Origin: Pestalotiopsis fici W106-1 | Taxonomy: Eukaryota; Ascomycota; Sordariomycetes; Amphisphaeriales; Sporocadaceae | DNA length: 64,000 bases | Assembly: GCF_000516985.1 (NCBI RefSeq) | Contig: NW_006917096.1 | Span: forward strand, 2,465,606-2,529,605 | Direction: 5' to 3' | Shown here: in pieces, positions 36,275 to 46,336 of the stretch | How positions within the stretch are numbered: position 1 is the stretch's first letter | Layout: each line of letters opens with the position of its first letter | The notes under the pieces: generated by a model | What the model saw: only the letters and a program-made list of their open reading frames with translations | Database searches by the model: none | Told to the model about the DNA's origin: nothing | Position numbers and translations under genes: made by a program

Positions 36275-37979
36275 ATGCCAAAGCTAACACATGATCAGCT
36301 GTTGCGATCTGTCGAGGGGGCAACCATACAGCATTCCGGTACTGCAGTTGAGCACCAGGACGAAAAGCAACAAAGACTGTCCAGTCTTACTAGCAAGATT
36401 GAAGACATCTTGACCAGCTTTCCTGCAGAAGGCACCGGGCTCGAAGGGTTCTCCGATGCTATCAATCTGCTAAGCAGCTATTCGGTGAATACATCATCTC
36501 GTGGCTTTCTGGGAAAACTGGTATCGGGACCTTCACTGCCTGGCATTGCTGCGGATTTATATGTGTCCATTCTCAATAACAACGGCCATGTGTGGCGAAC
36601 TTCACCTGCTCTCTCCACCGTGGAGAGACACGTTAGTCTCGAGCTGGCCAAGCTATTCGACCTGCGTGGTCCATACGCCGGAGGTGTCACAGTGCCAGGT
36701 GGAGCTGCCGGCAGCATGCTTGCCATGTTGGTAGCCCGAAACATTATTTCTCCAGACGTCAAAATCCAAGGACGCGCATCCAAAAAGTACGCCATTTTCG
36801 TGTCAGAGTCAGCACATTACTCGATATCGAATGCTGCCCAAATCGTTGGGCTCGGGTCAGACTCTGTTATCAGAGTGCCAACTGTGGACAATGAGATCAT
36901 GGACATGCTTAGCCTTGAGAACCTGGTTCGCGCTGCAGTAGATAGTGACAAGATTCCATTGATGATTTCTCACCTGAGCCGATGTGTGAAGGGGGAACTG
37001 AAGACGAGATGATCGAGGAAGCATTGAAAGTTGTCTGAGTTGATCTCTAGTCTACAAAAGAGAGGTGCTGAAGAGCGACTATATACACACGCAGGTGATC
37101 TGCGGTGGGTACTGACTACGTCAGTACGACATGATTGCTGCAATTTCCGGAACTACTGTCAGCGGCGCGTTTGATCCTCTCGACAAAATTGGTGCGATCG
37201 CCCGGGCGGCGAATGCTTGGTTCCATGTGGATGCCTGCTGGGGCGGAGCAGTCGCCTTTTCTGACAAGCTGAAACACATGCTTCGCGGAAGCGAGCTGGC
37301 GGACAGCATCGCCTTCAACCCGCACAAGATGCCCGGGGTGCCTTTGCTCTGTGCCTTTCTGTTAGCAAGAGATTTACGCACGTTCTGGGTTGCGAATAAA
37401 CTAAAGGCTGGATACTTGTTCCATGAAAACCATGCCAATACAAAGGCAGAAAAGATCCAACCTCTGGATCAAAAGCATGACTCGAAGGACTGGAGGAATT
37501 CCGCTCAGCTGGAAGATGCTCCCAATGTGTCTGAAATTCGAGATCTTGCTTCACTGACAGTGCAGTGCTGTCGATGATCAGACGCAACCAAAATGTTTCT
37601 CCATTGGAAATATTATGGTACCAATGGGATTGGTCGAGAGGTTGAGCAGGCTGTCGATTGTGCGCAGCACTTTGCTCGACTCCTTAGCTCTCATTCCAAC
37701 TTCGAGCTCCTGACTGAGCGCCACGTCTTTGCTCAAGTATGTTTCTACTGGAAACATCAGAAACAAATCGACTCACTCAATGATCGTGCGGCTCTGAACA
37801 GTCGAAGTACGCATTTTTTGTACGATAGACTTGCTCAACATGGATGGTATATAGATCATGCACCTGACGAGGTCAATGGTGAGTTTCTTCGAGTGGCATG
37901 CACTCGATCCACAACGCGACAGACAGTTGAGCAACTTTTCGCCAAGTTGATAGAAGTGGGTAAGGCATTGGATCAGTGA
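36275..37979 (+). pseudogene. Group II PLP-dependent decarboxylase, disrupted
   Basis: Three colinear blocks in one family order: 36275-36967, 37131-37574 and 37578-37979. Signs of the glutamate/cysteine-sulfinate/aromatic amino acid decarboxylase fold are SVNTSSRGFLGKLVSG, GGVTVPGGAAGSMLAMLVAR, the PLP-stacking His in SESAHYSISNAA, VDACWGGAVAFSD with the PLP-binding Asp, and the Schiff-base Lys in FNPHKMPGVP. Two lesions break it. A 163-base insertion lies between two ATGATT copies (36962-36967 and 37131-37136), and an in-frame TGA at 37575-37577 falls where Arg is expected (VQCCR, stop, SDATKMFLHW). Splicing inside the insertion could restore the frame across it, but not across the TGA. The substrate is unknown. 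The MFS transporter downstream may once have been a partner. Confidence 0.85.
36968..37130 (+). repeat. 163-base introner/MITE-like insertion, copy 1
   Basis: It sits inside the decarboxylase gene, flanked by direct ATGATT repeats. Removing it with one repeat copy joins KIPLM to IAAISGTT, which fits the family without gap. It contains a 5' GTGAAG at 36986 and a 3' GTACTGACTACGTCAG (branch plus acceptor, ending 37124). Splicing 36986-37124 keeps the frame and leaves ten extra residues. No terminal inverted repeat and no coding capacity are seen. A diverged copy lies at 42049-42209. Confidence 0.65.
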
Positions 37980-40653: not shown

Positions 40654-42048
40654 AAGACTTCAGATCTCCGACTCTAGCTAATAGTAAATTTATATAATTC
40701 CATAAATTGTAGTATTTTCTTTTCGCGATAAGGCTGTGTCTGTTTGAAGTCCAGTTAAACAGCGGCACCTTGATCGACGAATAGTTTACATATTTTGTAT
40801 ACTTAGCAATAAAAAACCGTAATTGGAAGATAAGTTAAGTGATGTTATACATATTCCCATGCATCGATATAGTATTACGTATGCGTGCTTCTCGGCAGCG
40901 CTTCAATGTAAGGTGCGTAACTGTCTATTAAGAACTTCCCAACTAAAGATGAGCATATCTGGTATATTTCGCTAGTATATGTATTTATCGGCATGCTTAA
41001 CCATACACAGGCCGTGAAATCTGCATGGATATTGAATATAAGCCTGGCGCTGAGAAATTCAAATCTAAGAATCCTGTGTGCGTTCTGTTGCACCAAATCT
41101 AGTGGCAAACACTGGTAGTAAAATAATCGCTTTATATTTGTCTACTTGTTAGAATACTGGAATTTGCGGTTTAGTACGATGAAGGTATCTAGATACCTAG
41201 GTAGATAGTACAGACTGGTATACTGTTAGTCAGCCGAACGCCGGAAGGCGTTATCTACAGGCCATCGTATGAAGGGAAGTATTCTCTTGAGATGGCACGT
41301 TGAATATATATCTATTTGCCGTCGCCTGTTGTACTGTAAGGCCAGAGCCTTGCTGATTTGTACTGGTACTTCACGGAAAACGACGGAGAAGAAGGTTTTT
41401 GATGGAAGATGATTATGTCAACTAGCTACGGCCACGAGACTGTGGATTATCAGGCTCTGATGATCATCAATCTATGTGTGGCAAGTGTAGCAAAAGGTGA
41501 TAAAGAGAAGAGGGCGGAAAGCTACAGTGGCTGCAGGGGAAATTAGGTACTAGTACCTAGTGTGGTGCCTAGCACCTAACATGTACGAAGTGAAATCCAT
41601 CTGGATGGTGAGACCATTCTACAGCCTCAGTATTTAAAGGACTTTGCCAAGACTACAACTGCTCTGAAAGATAGTGGAACCAAGTTCCCTACACTATTTA
41701 TAACCGTTATGAATGATTGTCGGGCGATTGTGATAGACGCAATAGAAGAAATCAGCTTGGCTTATAAATGCATCGCAACCAATATAGAACGGGCAAGAAA
41801 GAAGGCAACGCACCAAGATAACGAGAGATCTAGTGGTGCAGATGTTTGGACGTGGGATACACCTATCGGAAGCCGCCCGAGCTATTCCCAGGTGCTTTGA
41901 AGTTTCTGTAAAAAAGATTTCTTATTGGTTCAAGAATGCTCCTTGGTCACCTTGATGGGCACCACTGAAAACGAAACGTGGAGACAGTTGGGTCCCCTAG
42001 GTCTATTCATCTCTGTCTAAGCGTTTTATAGATTACTCAATAGCTTAC
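40654..42048. other. Gene-poor A/T-rich stretch
   Basis: About 1.4 kb with many TACCTAG/CTAGGTA palindromes (41190-41210, 41545-41580). A 63-codon frame at 41709-41900 starts with ATG about 75 bases after a TATTTAAA box (41632-41639) and could be a small gene, but nothing supports it further. Confidence 0.4.
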
Positions 42049-42209
42049 CTCACCTGAGCCAATATGTGAAGGGAAGGATGTGATCGAAGGAGCATAGAAA
42101 GATATCTAAGTTGATCTAAGATCAACAACGAGAAGTCCTAAACAGCTATCCAATATACCAGAGCAGGTGATCTGCGGTAGGTACTGACTACATTAGTGCA
42201 ACATTTCAA
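42049..42209 (+). repeat. Introner/MITE-like repeat, copy 2
   Basis: It aligns with 36970-37134 over its full length with frequent substitutions and small gaps. Shared landmarks in order are TCACCTGAGCC, TGTGAAGG, AAGTTGATCT (GAGTTGATCT in copy 1), GCAGGTGATCTGCGGT and GTACTGACTAC followed by an AG. Flanking DNA is unrelated to that of copy 1, so the segment moved as a unit. Confidence 0.65.
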
Positions 42210-42957: not shown

Positions 42958-43833
42958 CTAGTTAGATCTTCCTAGGTATAAGATCTTGCGGCACAGCTTG
43001 TTTGAGCAGCAGGTGGTCTCCTTTCTTACAAGCCATGTTTCGCGGAAATGGAGTTCACCTGCGCCCAGTTGCTCTTGAGTGGTTTGGATCCTAAGCTCAC
43101 GGCAGATGTCGTTGCATTCATGCGTAGAGAAATCCTTCAAGCCATCCCGAGCACGTTTGGTACCATACTCTTGGAACCTCTCATAGGAATCAGTCAAGAT
43201 TTCAGCCGCAAGTATGTTGTTGCCATGTGCAATTATCTTGTCAACGAAGAGCGAGCCTCTAGACCGTTCCAAGGTGAAATGAGAAAAAGCCTCCGTGAAT
43301 ATGTAGGACGCGTCATTGTCGAACACTTCGTCGCGATCGGTAGGCATTCTCAACCGATCTGGCAACAAGTAGTTTTCGCGGTCACTATCCCCACTACGCG
43401 TGAATGGTATGTACACGAGACAGTCCAAAGGCTTATGGCCATAGCCGAGAAGCGCGTTGAATTCAAGAGCAAAAGTTCGAGTCAACTCCATGCTTCGAAT
43501 CCTTTTGGTAAATAAGTCCAACCAGTGACTTTGTGTCTTTTTAGACGTCTGAATGAAGAACTCGTTTGACGAACAAGCAATTTTGGCGTATGAGTACAGC
43601 ATATTTGAGTTCTCCTCGAATGGCTTGGAGTGGGCATATATAGTCAGCGGGGCATAGTTTACATCGGTGTCGTTGTCTCCGGCTATCAGATTGTGGAGGA
43701 TCCTGGAATCATGCCCAGCGGCGTTGCTCATCACGGCTAAGGCTTGCACCGTTTCATCGAGCCAGCCGCTGGCATCCCACTGTGGACGGCTAACTTCCCT
43801 CCCTAGCGGTTGTACCCGGGTCCACGCTGCCAT
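42958..43833 (-). CDS. Hypothetical protein downstream of HET gene
   Basis: An open frame of 291 residues from an ATG at 43833 (MAAWTRVQPLGREVSRPQWD). It is mixed helical, with Cys clusters at the C-terminus (TCCSNKLCRKIL). No recognised domain. The stop just before the ATG and an ACTAAC/CTAG pair upstream (a possible branch and acceptor) leave room for an upstream exon. It lies about 140 bases after the ancestral stop of the HET gene on the same strand, so it may be part of the same allorecognition locus. The family cannot be named and the frame could be fortuitous. Confidence 0.45.
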   Translation of the reverse strand: MAAWTRVQPLGREVSRPQWDASGWLDETVQALAVMSNAAGHDSRILHNLIAGDNDTDVNYAPLTIYAHSKPFEENSNMLYSYAKIACSSNEFFIQTSKKTQSHWLDLFTKRIRSMELTRTFALEFNALLGYGHKPLDCLVYIPFTRSGDSDRENYLLPDRLRMPTDRDEVFDNDASYIFTEAFSHFTLERSRGSLFVDKIIAHGNNILAAEILTDSYERFQEYGTKRARDGLKDFSTHECNDICRELRIQTTQEQLGAGELHFRETWLVRKETTCCSNKLCRKILYLGRSN

Positions 43834-43987: not shown

Positions 43988-44105
43988 CCAATGGCTCCTC
44001 TGCCAGTTTTGGCCAGACGACAGTAGCTTTCCTAGCAGATATGAACCTCAGAGCTTCGAAGCCATGCCCCCGAGAGTGGGAGATATGCTCAAATTCACTC
44101 AGCTC
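43988..44105 (-). repeat. 118-base direct repeat, copy A (beyond HET stop)
   Basis: Nearly identical to 44251-44368, at a fixed offset of 263 bases. It encodes a second version of the HET C-terminal segment (FEHISHSRGHGFEALRFISA) in a frame shifted relative to the gene, ending in a TAG at 43974-43976 that looks like the original stop. Confidence 0.85.
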
Positions 44106-46336
44106 CTTTCACCAGCTAATTCTCTTGCGCATACCTCGCGCTCAGCCCTTTCGTACTGAAGACGGTGATAATTTGCAATATCCTCGTATGACTTGTACTC
44201 AACCCCGTCGTACTGAAGACTGTATCTATCTCGTAGACTCTCGTAAAAATCCAATGGCTCATCCGCCAGTTTTGGCCAGACGACAGTAGCTTTCCTAACA
44301 GATATGAAACTCAGAACTTCGAAGCCATGCCCCCGAGAGTGGGAGATATGCTCAAATTCACTCAGCTCGTTCAATGTCAAAGCATCTTGCGTATGAATCG
44401 TTTCTGCGTTGGAGTGATACCATGGTTTTGGGAAAAGCGAATGCCAATTGTGGACTAGTTTCATCGCCAATTTGTGCTTGTATTCTTCAGCCAAAAGCCC
44501 TTGGGTTGTGTTTGTTATTGAAGATGAGCGGCGCATTTCATCTGATTTTGAGTCCTGTTCGTTACGAAGCATCGTGCTGCGGAGCGATGCATGTTGCAGA
44601 GAGTTCGAGAGTTGTTCCTTCTCCTGCTGTAGCTTGAGAATCTGTCGATCAAGATCGGTCATGCGTACACGCATGGGTTCCAACTTTTCTTCTTCTTGAT
44701 CAATCTGCTGCTGCACATGCATGTACTCATTTGTGGCTGTGTATTCGTCTTGAAAACCGTGGAGCAGATCGTTCATGATACTTATCTGTCCCATTGCATA
44801 TGATATATCAACTGTGTCTTCTTTGCTCCACTTCGTGGACTCCACGCGAACAACAAACATGGTGCGGTTCCCGACAAGCTCTGGGCGAATGCCAACGTGC
44901 AATCCACGCCTGCCATTGTTGGCGCCGTGTTTCCCAAATTCATCTGGCTTCAGCGAATCCAGGTTCTGTAGGACCGTATCTAGCTCAATGGCTTGGGAGC
45001 ATATCAAGACGTGCCATTCTACCCGGGGTTGCGAGTCTTGATTTTTGGGGTCCAATATGACTAAAACGTCGAATTCTTCTGTCTTGAGGGGCTTCAGTCG
45101 GATACAGACTTTTCTGACGTCACTACCATTTGTTTGAACGGTTGGCACAATCATGTCCCTTTCTTCATCCCACCATACACGAGGTTCAACCTCGGCCACC
45201 TTGACAAACCTCTCGACAGAATTGTCAATGTAGAAGGTGAGCTGCGAATTTGAGCTTTCCCCGCCTCTGTGAACTGTAGTAAGCAGCCGTAGTACTTTAG
45301 GCAGTGTTTTGGAAGCAGGGACTGAAAGCAGGCTCAGATCGCGGTCGTACAGTCTCTCGTATTTGTCAGACAGACCGGGCGAGGCAGACTTGGTCACTGG
45401 GATGGCAATGACTCGGTCAGGGTCATCATTCAGACGACAGTGTAGAATAATGAAGCTATGGCCCGATTCGTCCTCGTGAAGGCACCGATGGAGTTGTAGG
45501 CTACCACCAGCAACATGAACCGGGTCTAAAAGTTCATTCTCATGCTCACTGGGCACGATTCTGCCTGACGAAGAGAAGTCTGCCGGACTGGTTGCTAGTG
45601 CGCCTCGAGGGCAGTCGCTCAATGCAATGCGTTGGAGTCCCCAGGCCAATATGGAATCGTCTCGATTTTGTCGCATGATTTCTTCCTGTAAACGTATAAA
45701 GGCACGGTCGCCGTCGCCGTAGATCATCGGCATGCTAATGTCGAACAATCCCAGAAGACAATATGCCAGATCTTCTTTCCTCCTTGTGCTCCTCTTGGCC
45801 GCCCAGGACATTCGTTGAGCCACGCTTGCCTCATTTAGATCCATCACTCCCAGAAGGAACTGTCTAGGAATGCCAGTAGTGCTGACAAGCACCGGGCACA
45901 GCTCTCGTTTGGTACCAAGACAGTCCCAATCATTGCGGTAGAATCGCAAAACCTTGGGAGCGATCAGTTCCTGCAACGTCCAGCCACGACTGAACCATCG
46001 GCTGTGACTGAAAGCGGAGTCTGTGTCCCACTGGTCGACATATCCGTCCACATCAGAGAGATACGCGTAGCAGATGCTCGCATCGGCGTACCATCGAAAC
46101 ATTGAGTTGATAGCCTCGCTGAGCTCTGTAGAATTGGTCTTATCGATACAACACGTATCGATCCAGACGTAGTCTAGACCATCCTTAACAGCTTGAGCGC
46201 AGCTCCCGTCGAATTTGCGCCGCCCCATTGTAGGTGGGATCCGCTCGTATTCTTGGGCATCTTGAAACGATACCTCCTCACTGTCTGGACCCCAGGTATG
46301 TGATAGGATGGCGTAGGCAGGTATATTGATATCCAT
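44099..46336 (-). CDS. HET-domain (heterokaryon incompatibility) protein
   Basis: A single-exon frame of 745 residues. The HET domain has its three conserved blocks: AYAILSHTWG at the start, YVWIDTCCIDKTNSTELSEA near residue 55, and WFSRGWTLQELIAPK near residue 115. Proteins with this domain start cell death when unlike fungal individuals fuse. The middle is unassigned. Residues of about 535-600 form a coiled coil (MTDLDRQILKLQQEKEQLSN), possibly for oligomerisation. The usual HET start MRLLN is present upstream at 46377 but separated by a one-base deletion, so translation must begin at the internal ATG 46336, losing about 14 residues. The 3' end carries a tandem duplication, and the present stop lies inside the second copy. 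Function may be impaired. Confidence 0.88.
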   Translation of the reverse strand: MDINIPAYAILSHTWGPDSEEVSFQDAQEYERIPPTMGRRKFDGSCAQAVKDGLDYVWIDTCCIDKTNSTELSEAINSMFRWYADASICYAYLSDVDGYVDQWDTDSAFSHSRWFSRGWTLQELIAPKVLRFYRNDWDCLGTKRELCPVLVSTTGIPRQFLLGVMDLNEASVAQRMSWAAKRSTRRKEDLAYCLLGLFDISMPMIYGDGDRAFIRLQEEIMRQNRDDSILAWGLQRIALSDCPRGALATSPADFSSSGRIVPSEHENELLDPVHVAGGSLQLHRCLHEDESGHSFIILHCRLNDDPDRVIAIPVTKSASPGLSDKYERLYDRDLSLLSVPASKTLPKVLRLLTTVHRGGESSNSQLTFYIDNSVERFVKVAEVEPRVWWDEERDMIVPTVQTNGSDVRKVCIRLKPLKTEEFDVLVILDPKNQDSQPRVEWHVLICSQAIELDTVLQNLDSLKPDEFGKHGANNGRRGLHVGIRPELVGNRTMFVVRVESTKWSKEDTVDISYAMGQISIMNDLLHGFQDEYTATNEYMHVQQQIDQEEEKLEPMRVRMTDLDRQILKLQQEKEQLSNSLQHASLRSTMLRNEQDSKSDEMRRSSSITNTTQGLLAEEYKHKLAMKLVHNWHSLFPKPWYHSNAETIHTQDALTLNELSEFEHISHSRGHGFEVLSFISVRKATVVWPKLADEPLDFYESLRDRYSLQYDGVEYKSYEDIANYHRLQYERAEREVCARELAGERS
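44251..44368 (-). repeat. 118-base direct repeat, copy B (inside HET gene)
   Basis: In frame with the HET protein, coding LSEFEHISHSRGHGFEVLSF and onward to ADEPLDF. It matches 43988-44105 with about a dozen differences. The spacer also holds a smaller repeat, CGTACTGAAGAC, at about 44151 and 44209. Confidence 0.85.

What the first reader, a model, noticed from the sequence alone, without database searches (positions are those of the whole stretch)
36962..37136. Short repeat inserted in the decarboxylase gene carries usable splice signals (introner-like)
Seen: two ATGATT direct repeats flank 163 bases, and deleting them with one ATGATT restores an uninterrupted family sequence (KIPLM to IAAISGTT). 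The insert itself has GTGAAG at 36986 and CTGAC plus CAG at 37112-37124. Splicing these keeps the frame (711 bases before, phase 0 after). Inference: a mobile non-coding element that enters genes and is largely removed as an intron, comparable to introner elements in other fungi and algae.
Basis: partly seen in the sequence, partly recalled or inferred. Interest (0 to 1): 0.8.

Follow-up and report, generated by a model that had tools for sequence, protein, structure and literature searches.

The report
Short fungal jumping element breaks gene
A 164-base non-coding mobile element, found at many places in this fungal genome, has recently jumped into a decarboxylase gene; it looks like a small transposable element rather than a new kind of intron.

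Summary
The insertion is real. The boundaries shift by one base: the element is 164 bp (36968-37131, TCTCACC...ACGACA) with a 5-bp target-site duplication, TGATT. Two end-pattern scans merge into 107 places in the genome (reversed-pattern controls 0). Of 48 copies with both ends recognisable, 31 carry a perfect 5-bp duplication, none a perfect match of 4 or 6-9 bp; mispaired flanks reach 5/5 in 0.13%. Identical copies at different sites show recent movement; copies of about 72-91% identity show an old family. The introner reading is not supported: copies are not generally enriched in open frames, one exonic copy is antisense, the proposed donor is weak, the splice would leave ten extra residues, and the host gene has a second lesion, an in-frame stop about 440 bases downstream. 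Introners in ascomycetes are reported without target duplications. The genome is Pestalotiopsis fici or very close. Best explanation: a non-autonomous element inserted whole by an integrase or transposase supplied in trans. No inverted ends beyond chance and no autonomous partner were found, so LTR-derived versus DNA-type origin stays open. RNA-seq could not be examined.

The parts
36963..36967 (.). left copy of the 5-bp target-site duplication TGATT
36968..37131 (+). the 164-bp mobile element (TCTCACC...ACGACA)
37132..37136 (.). right copy of the target-site duplication TGATT
37080..37085 (+). TATATA, a TATA-like stretch inside the element (function not tested)
   Evidence: read by eye
37109..37127 (.). 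palindrome GTACTGAC-TAC-GTCAGTAC near the right end, predicted hairpin; it supplies CTGAC...CAG on both strands
36986..36991 (+).
36275..36967 (+). decarboxylase gene, part before the insertion (PF00282 profile 31-201)
37132..37979 (+). decarboxylase gene, part after the insertion (PF00282 profile 202-301 and 319-374)
37575..37577 (+). second lesion: in-frame TGA where the ten aligned relatives have R or K
42048..42203 (+). second, older copy of the family in the window (156 bp, 74% identical)

Best explanation
The insert is a young copy of a non-coding, non-autonomous mobile element of 164 bp that moves as a complete unit. Shown: many dispersed copies, fixed ends, an exact 5-bp target-site duplication, identical copies at unrelated sites, and interruption of a decarboxylase reading frame. 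Inferred: an integrase or transposase supplied by another element joins both element ends to a 5-bp staggered cut, with a lean to A+T-rich DNA; the copy in the decarboxylase landed recently and inactivates a gene that also holds an in-frame stop; its shortness (below the length that RIP usually attacks, recalled) lets near-identical copies persist in a genome whose reverse-transcriptase elements are heavily mutated. The enzyme is not shown. I slightly favour an LTR-type origin (the unit equals a short solo LTR or an LTR-derived unit) over a DNA-transposon derivative: the ends are asymmetric without an inverted repeat, 5 bp is a usual LTR-integrase duplication (recalled), and LTR elements dominate the repeats of other Pestalotiopsis genomes (PMC13237565, passages).
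For: 107 places from two end patterns, controls 0. 31 of 48 copies with both ends carry a perfect 5-bp duplication, none a perfect 4-mer or 6- to 9-mer, against 0.13% for mispaired flanks; 4 of 50 further, mostly older places are perfect and 8 have 4 of 5. The window copy equals L088 base for base, and six copies of another subfamily equal one another. Frame interruption at PF00282 position 201/202, ten of ten aligned relatives continuous there. A+T 69% in the duplication, 65% in the 19-bp target, 51% in wider flanks.
Against: No autonomous partner was found: among neighbouring places no unpaired left end lies within 15 kb upstream of an unpaired right end on the same strand, and the 122 reverse-transcriptase matches are not nearer to copies than chance within 6 kb (2 of 107, null mean 2.5) or 8 kb (6, null mean 3.3), though within 15 kb they are slightly (10, null mean 5.5, about 95% range 2-9). 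No inverted repeat beyond shuffles, unlike a MITE. Right-truncated copies break at recurrent points (27 and about 121-123), which this mechanism does not explain.
Confidence: 0.85

Rival explanations
1. Solo LTRs (or a TRIM-like relative) of a short-LTR retrotransposon: each copy is what LTR-LTR recombination left behind, or a single-LTR unit put in by an LTR integrase.
For: Exact 5-bp duplication, T...CA ends, no inverted repeat, TATA-like stretch. LTR elements dominate repeats in other Pestalotiopsis genomes (PMC13237565, passages). Full-length parents could be hidden by RIP or by assembly gaps: one copy, L112, runs straight into a 100-N gap.
Against: No two-LTR element was recognised: eight same-strand neighbouring pairs lie within 15 kb and, compared by eye, none has matching outer flanks. 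The 2.6 kb read upstream of one reverse transcriptase near a copy holds no second LTR. A ratio of about 100 solo to 0 full-length copies would be extreme for a recently active family.
Confidence: 0.42
2. A miniature derivative of a DNA transposon with a 5-bp duplication and degenerate ends.
For: Copies insert as a complete unit of constant length (38 of 59 two-ended places are exactly 164 bp). Fungal DNA transposon groups with duplications of 2-5 bp (CMCT) and hAT families with 5 bp are described (PMC12730594, passages). hAT dimerisation domains occur in this genome (16 matches), and a MITE class is reported for P. fici (PMC4320822, passages).
Against: The two ends are no more alike as inverted repeats than shuffles (2498 of 5000 shuffles as good). 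DNA transposons are low or absent in other Pestalotiopsis genomes (PMC13237565, passages). No transposase was found between such ends.
Confidence: 0.38
3. An introner: a mobile element that inserts in genes and is removed as a spliceosomal intron.
For: A CTGAC branch-like site 5 bases upstream of GTCAG, a GT 19 bases into the element, and a frame-keeping splice. Introners with TSDs, and ones that leave extra residues, exist in other eukaryotes (PMC9860276, passages).
Against: No general gene enrichment, an antisense exonic copy, weak donor (recalled consensus), ten extra residues, an independent in-frame stop in the gene. Ascomycete introners reported without TSDs or TIRs (PMC9860276, passages).
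Confidence: 0.04
4. A SINE-like element copied by target-primed reverse transcription.
For: Copies truncated at either end exist. The right block is among the most conserved parts and a hairpin is predicted in it.
Against: The duplication has a fixed length. Of 12 copies retaining the right end, most of them left-truncated, 11 have no exact 5-bp duplication near their left limit; L071 has one 12 bases to the left, which fits a nearly full-length copy with a changed left end. No box B, no tail; no Rfam family above threshold.
Confidence: 0.06

Closest known systems
Solo LTRs and TRIM elements of fungal LTR retrotransposons (features recalled)
   Same: 5-bp duplication, asymmetric ends T...CA, short non-coding unit, dispersed
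   Different: No two-LTR parent, primer-binding site or internal region was found; left end is TC, not the usual TG
MITEs of fungi, such as the mimp type (features recalled)
   Same: Short, non-coding, many near-identical copies, defined ends and target duplications, some in or near genes
   Different: No inverted repeat beyond chance; no transposase partner found
Introner-like elements of Dothideomycetes; introners (PMC9860276 passages, PMC4457414 passages)
   Same: Short, repeated, can interrupt genes; carries branch-site-like and AG motifs
   Different: Ascomycete introners are reported gene-biased and without TSDs or TIRs; this one has a TSD and is not generally gene-enriched
Sister stwintrons of Hypoxylaceae and Xylariaceae (PMC12403724, passages)
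   Same: Same broad fungal group; near-identical short sequences at unrelated sites; inverted repeats near an end
   Different: Those are introns with seamless integration and no sign of target duplication

Membership tests
Introner / introner-like element | removed as a spliceosomal intron | not testable with these tools
   no RNA-seq on hand
Introner / introner-like element | copies biased to genes | tested here: not met
   median spanning frame 261 nt against 300 nt nearby; the 500-nt class is slightly above control (16% against 12%)
Introner / introner-like element | in ascomycetes: no TSD | tested here: not met
   31 of 48 copies with a perfect 5-bp TSD; feature from PMC9860276, passages
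Stwintron | seamless integration without TSD, nested introns | tested here: not met
   5-bp TSD; nesting of introns not tested; feature from PMC12403724, passages
MITE | terminal inverted repeats | tested here: not met
   2498 of 5000 shuffles as good
MITE | short, multicopy, fixed TSD | tested here: met
Solo LTR / TRIM | TSD of 4-6 bp and T...A ends (recalled) | tested here: met
Solo LTR / TRIM | a related two-LTR element with internal region in the genome | tested here: inconclusive
   none recognised; RIP and assembly gaps could hide it
SINE | Pol III boxes, tail, variable-length TSD (recalled) | tested here: not met

The most novel reading that the evidence does not exclude
The unit is neither a solo LTR nor a MITE but a 164-bp element without inverted or long terminal repeats that an LTR-type integrase inserts directly. 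Its conserved, hairpin-prone right block would be the recognition signal, and it would spread in a RIP-affected genome because it is too short to be mutated. The palindrome puts a branch-site-like CTGAC and a CAG on both strands, so some genic copies may now and then be spliced.
Probability: 0.12. Interest if true: 0.6.

Novelty: new member of a known kind. Interest (0 to 1): 0.36.

Why it matters
It is a recently active short element in a genome reported to be repeat-poor and heavily affected by RIP (PMC4320822, passages). The methods passage of that paper says repeat consensus sequences under 200 bp were discarded, so this family may have been missed, although the same paper also names a REPET annotation with a MITE class. 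It interrupts a gene, and it shows how a branch-site-like palindrome inside a mobile element can imitate an introner. If its moving enzyme were found, it would show how very short elements stay active where longer ones are mutated.

Tried and rejected
Rfam scan of the insert: three weak snoRNA matches (E 0.057 to 4.7), all below their gathering scores, taken as chance. tRNA-type promoter boxes: one box-A-like match on each strand, no box B. Conserved RNA structure: 8 predicted pairs, one with a compensatory change, most of them in the right hairpin; the single-strand fold is modestly more stable than shuffles (z -2.18; other strand z -1.59). Target-primed insertion. A longer element sharing the first 27 bases: the DNA beyond L124 is single-copy; L120 and the others were not searched. 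LTR partner near the reverse transcriptase on C12: none in the 2.6 kb that I could read, 21% G+C. Integrase domains (5 matches) and hAT domains (16) gave no link beyond one hAT match 1.3 kb from a copy. A profile search of the genome was not possible. No comparison with other Pestalotiopsis DNA was possible with the tools on hand. Papers: PMC9860276, PMC12403724, PMC4320822, PMC4457414, PMC12730594 and PMC13237565 were seen as passages; all others as search listings; none was read whole. Searches that could have shown an earlier description of this family: none of the listed titles or abstract starts describes it; this is no proof of absence.

Full report
Observation. The window lies at G000:C6:2465606-2529605 in a 51.7-Mb genome of 20 contigs. 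An MFS protein encoded about 2.3 kb to the right of the insert matches Pestalotiopsis fici PFICI_09218: all 381 aligned residues are identical, with one 20-residue gap. So this is P. fici or a very close relative. Comparison of copies shows that the A at 37131 belongs to the element: the element is 36968-37131 (164 bp) and the duplication is TGATT, 5 bp.

Copies. A DNA search scored 40 of 145 candidates; these match at 93-100%. Patterns for the two ends (up to 3 mismatches) hit 90 and 76 places, reversed controls 0. Merged they give 107 places, 59 with both ends, 38 of these exactly 164 bp and 9 of 165 bp. In the loci fetched first, 57 distinct copies could be read: 32 have a perfect 5-bp duplication, 6 have 4 of 5, 19 fewer. 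Among the 48 with both ends recognisable it is 31 perfect; perfect matches of length 4 and of 6-9 do not occur, length 3 occurs three times; mispaired flanks reach 5 of 5 in 0.13%. I then fetched the 50 places not yet covered: 48 gave a BLAST match, L113 and L132 none; 4 of the 50 have a perfect duplication and 8 have 4 of 5. Most of these are older copies; matches over the whole length run from about 72 to 91% identity. Young subfamilies differ at TACACACG / TACCCAAGC / TACCCACGC; six copies of the second kind are identical to one another and the window copy is identical to L088.

Anatomy. Ends TCTCACC and ACGACA (many older copies end in GCAACA). Left and right ends are no more alike as inverted repeats than shuffles. 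The right end holds an 8-bp palindrome predicted to form a hairpin. By eye the most conserved parts are the left end and roughly the last 44 bases. A+T is 69% in the duplication and 65% in the 19-bp target, against 51% in the wider flanks.

Host gene. It is a pyridoxal-dependent decarboxylase (PF00282). The profile breaks at 201/202 exactly where the insert lies. Ten relatives chosen from 120 listed are continuous there. At 37575-37577 a TGA stands where these ten have R or K. So the gene has two lesions, and splicing the insert out would not give a full-length protein. A database protein of 245 residues on a contig of 3,909,710 bases equals the frame that runs into the element (P0123); how it was predicted is not shown. 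The ten neighbouring frames that I scanned, of 31 listed, include no polyketide or peptide synthetase domain.

Introner test. At 56 empty sites the longest spanning frame has a median of 261 nt against 300 nt at nearby positions; 39% against 51% reach 300 nt, but 16% against 12% reach 500 nt. One copy lies antisense in a class II aldolase exon (L105). One seems to lie inside an intron of a P450 gene (L091; intron judged by eye). The proposed donor GTGAAG lacks the usual G at +5 (recalled). The splice would insert ten residues. Ascomycete introners are reported without TSDs or TIRs (PMC9860276, passages) and 288 Xylariales stwintrons without TSDs (PMC12403724, passages). The same paper on introners does describe other eukaryotes' introners with TSDs and with added residues, so those two traits alone do not exclude the class.

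Mechanism. Fixed ends and a fixed 5-bp duplication point to two-ended joining by an integrase or transposase. Of 12 copies that retain the right end, most of them left-truncated, 11 have no exact 5-bp duplication near their left limit; L071 has one 12 bases to the left, as a nearly full-length copy with a changed left end would. No partner was found. Reverse-transcriptase matches (83 and 39) lie within 6 kb of 2 of 107 copies (null mean 2.5), within 8 kb of 6 (null mean 3.3) and within 15 kb of 10 (null mean 5.5, range about 2-9); the last lies just above the null and leans toward a shared neighbourhood. Eight same-strand neighbouring pairs lie within 15 kb; by eye none has matching outer flanks. 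LTR-derived and DNA-type origins remain open.

RIP. Stops in the copia reverse-transcriptase matches are nearly always TAG or TAA; one of 83 matches lists a TGA. This fits the RIP reported for P. fici (PMC4320822, passages). That RIP spares short repeats is recalled, not tested.

Novelty. The methods passage of the P. fici paper discards repeats under 200 bp, while its results passage names REPET and a MITE class (PMC4320822). The family may therefore be undescribed, but it is a new member of a known kind: a short non-autonomous mobile element.

Noticed in passing
window 37575-37577: In-frame TGA in the decarboxylase gene, a second lesion independent of the insertion.
   Followed up: yes
window 42048-42203: A second, older copy of the same family (156 bp, 74% identical) about 4.9 kb to the right, same strand.
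   Followed up: partly
L120, L124, L112 (base 27); L092, L106, L153 (about bases 121-123): Right-truncated copies break at two recurrent points; L112 breaks into an assembly gap. Unexplained.
   Followed up: partly
L038 and L035 (G000:C9:1883872 and 1894758): Two inverted copies 10.7 kb apart share CTTCC at one junction each, as if the DNA between them had been inverted; the other junctions do not match.
   Followed up: partly
L116:350-700: A copy whose right part is inverted relative to its left part.
   Followed up: no
G000:C9: 16 of 107 places lie on this 2.6-Mb contig, about three times its share by length; three of them (1576568, 1587717, 1598449) are spaced about 11 kb apart.
   Followed up: no
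G000:C9:1596930-1597178: A hAT dimerisation domain with two TGA stops 1.3 kb from a copy at C9:1598449.
   Followed up: no
window 44099-46336 and 42958-43833: A HET-domain frame and an alpha-kinase frame near the site.
   Followed up: no
No Pestalotiopsis-named relative of the decarboxylase is among the 120 listed; the best are Aspergillus, Neonectria and Fusarium proteins, so the gene may be patchily distributed.
   Followed up: no
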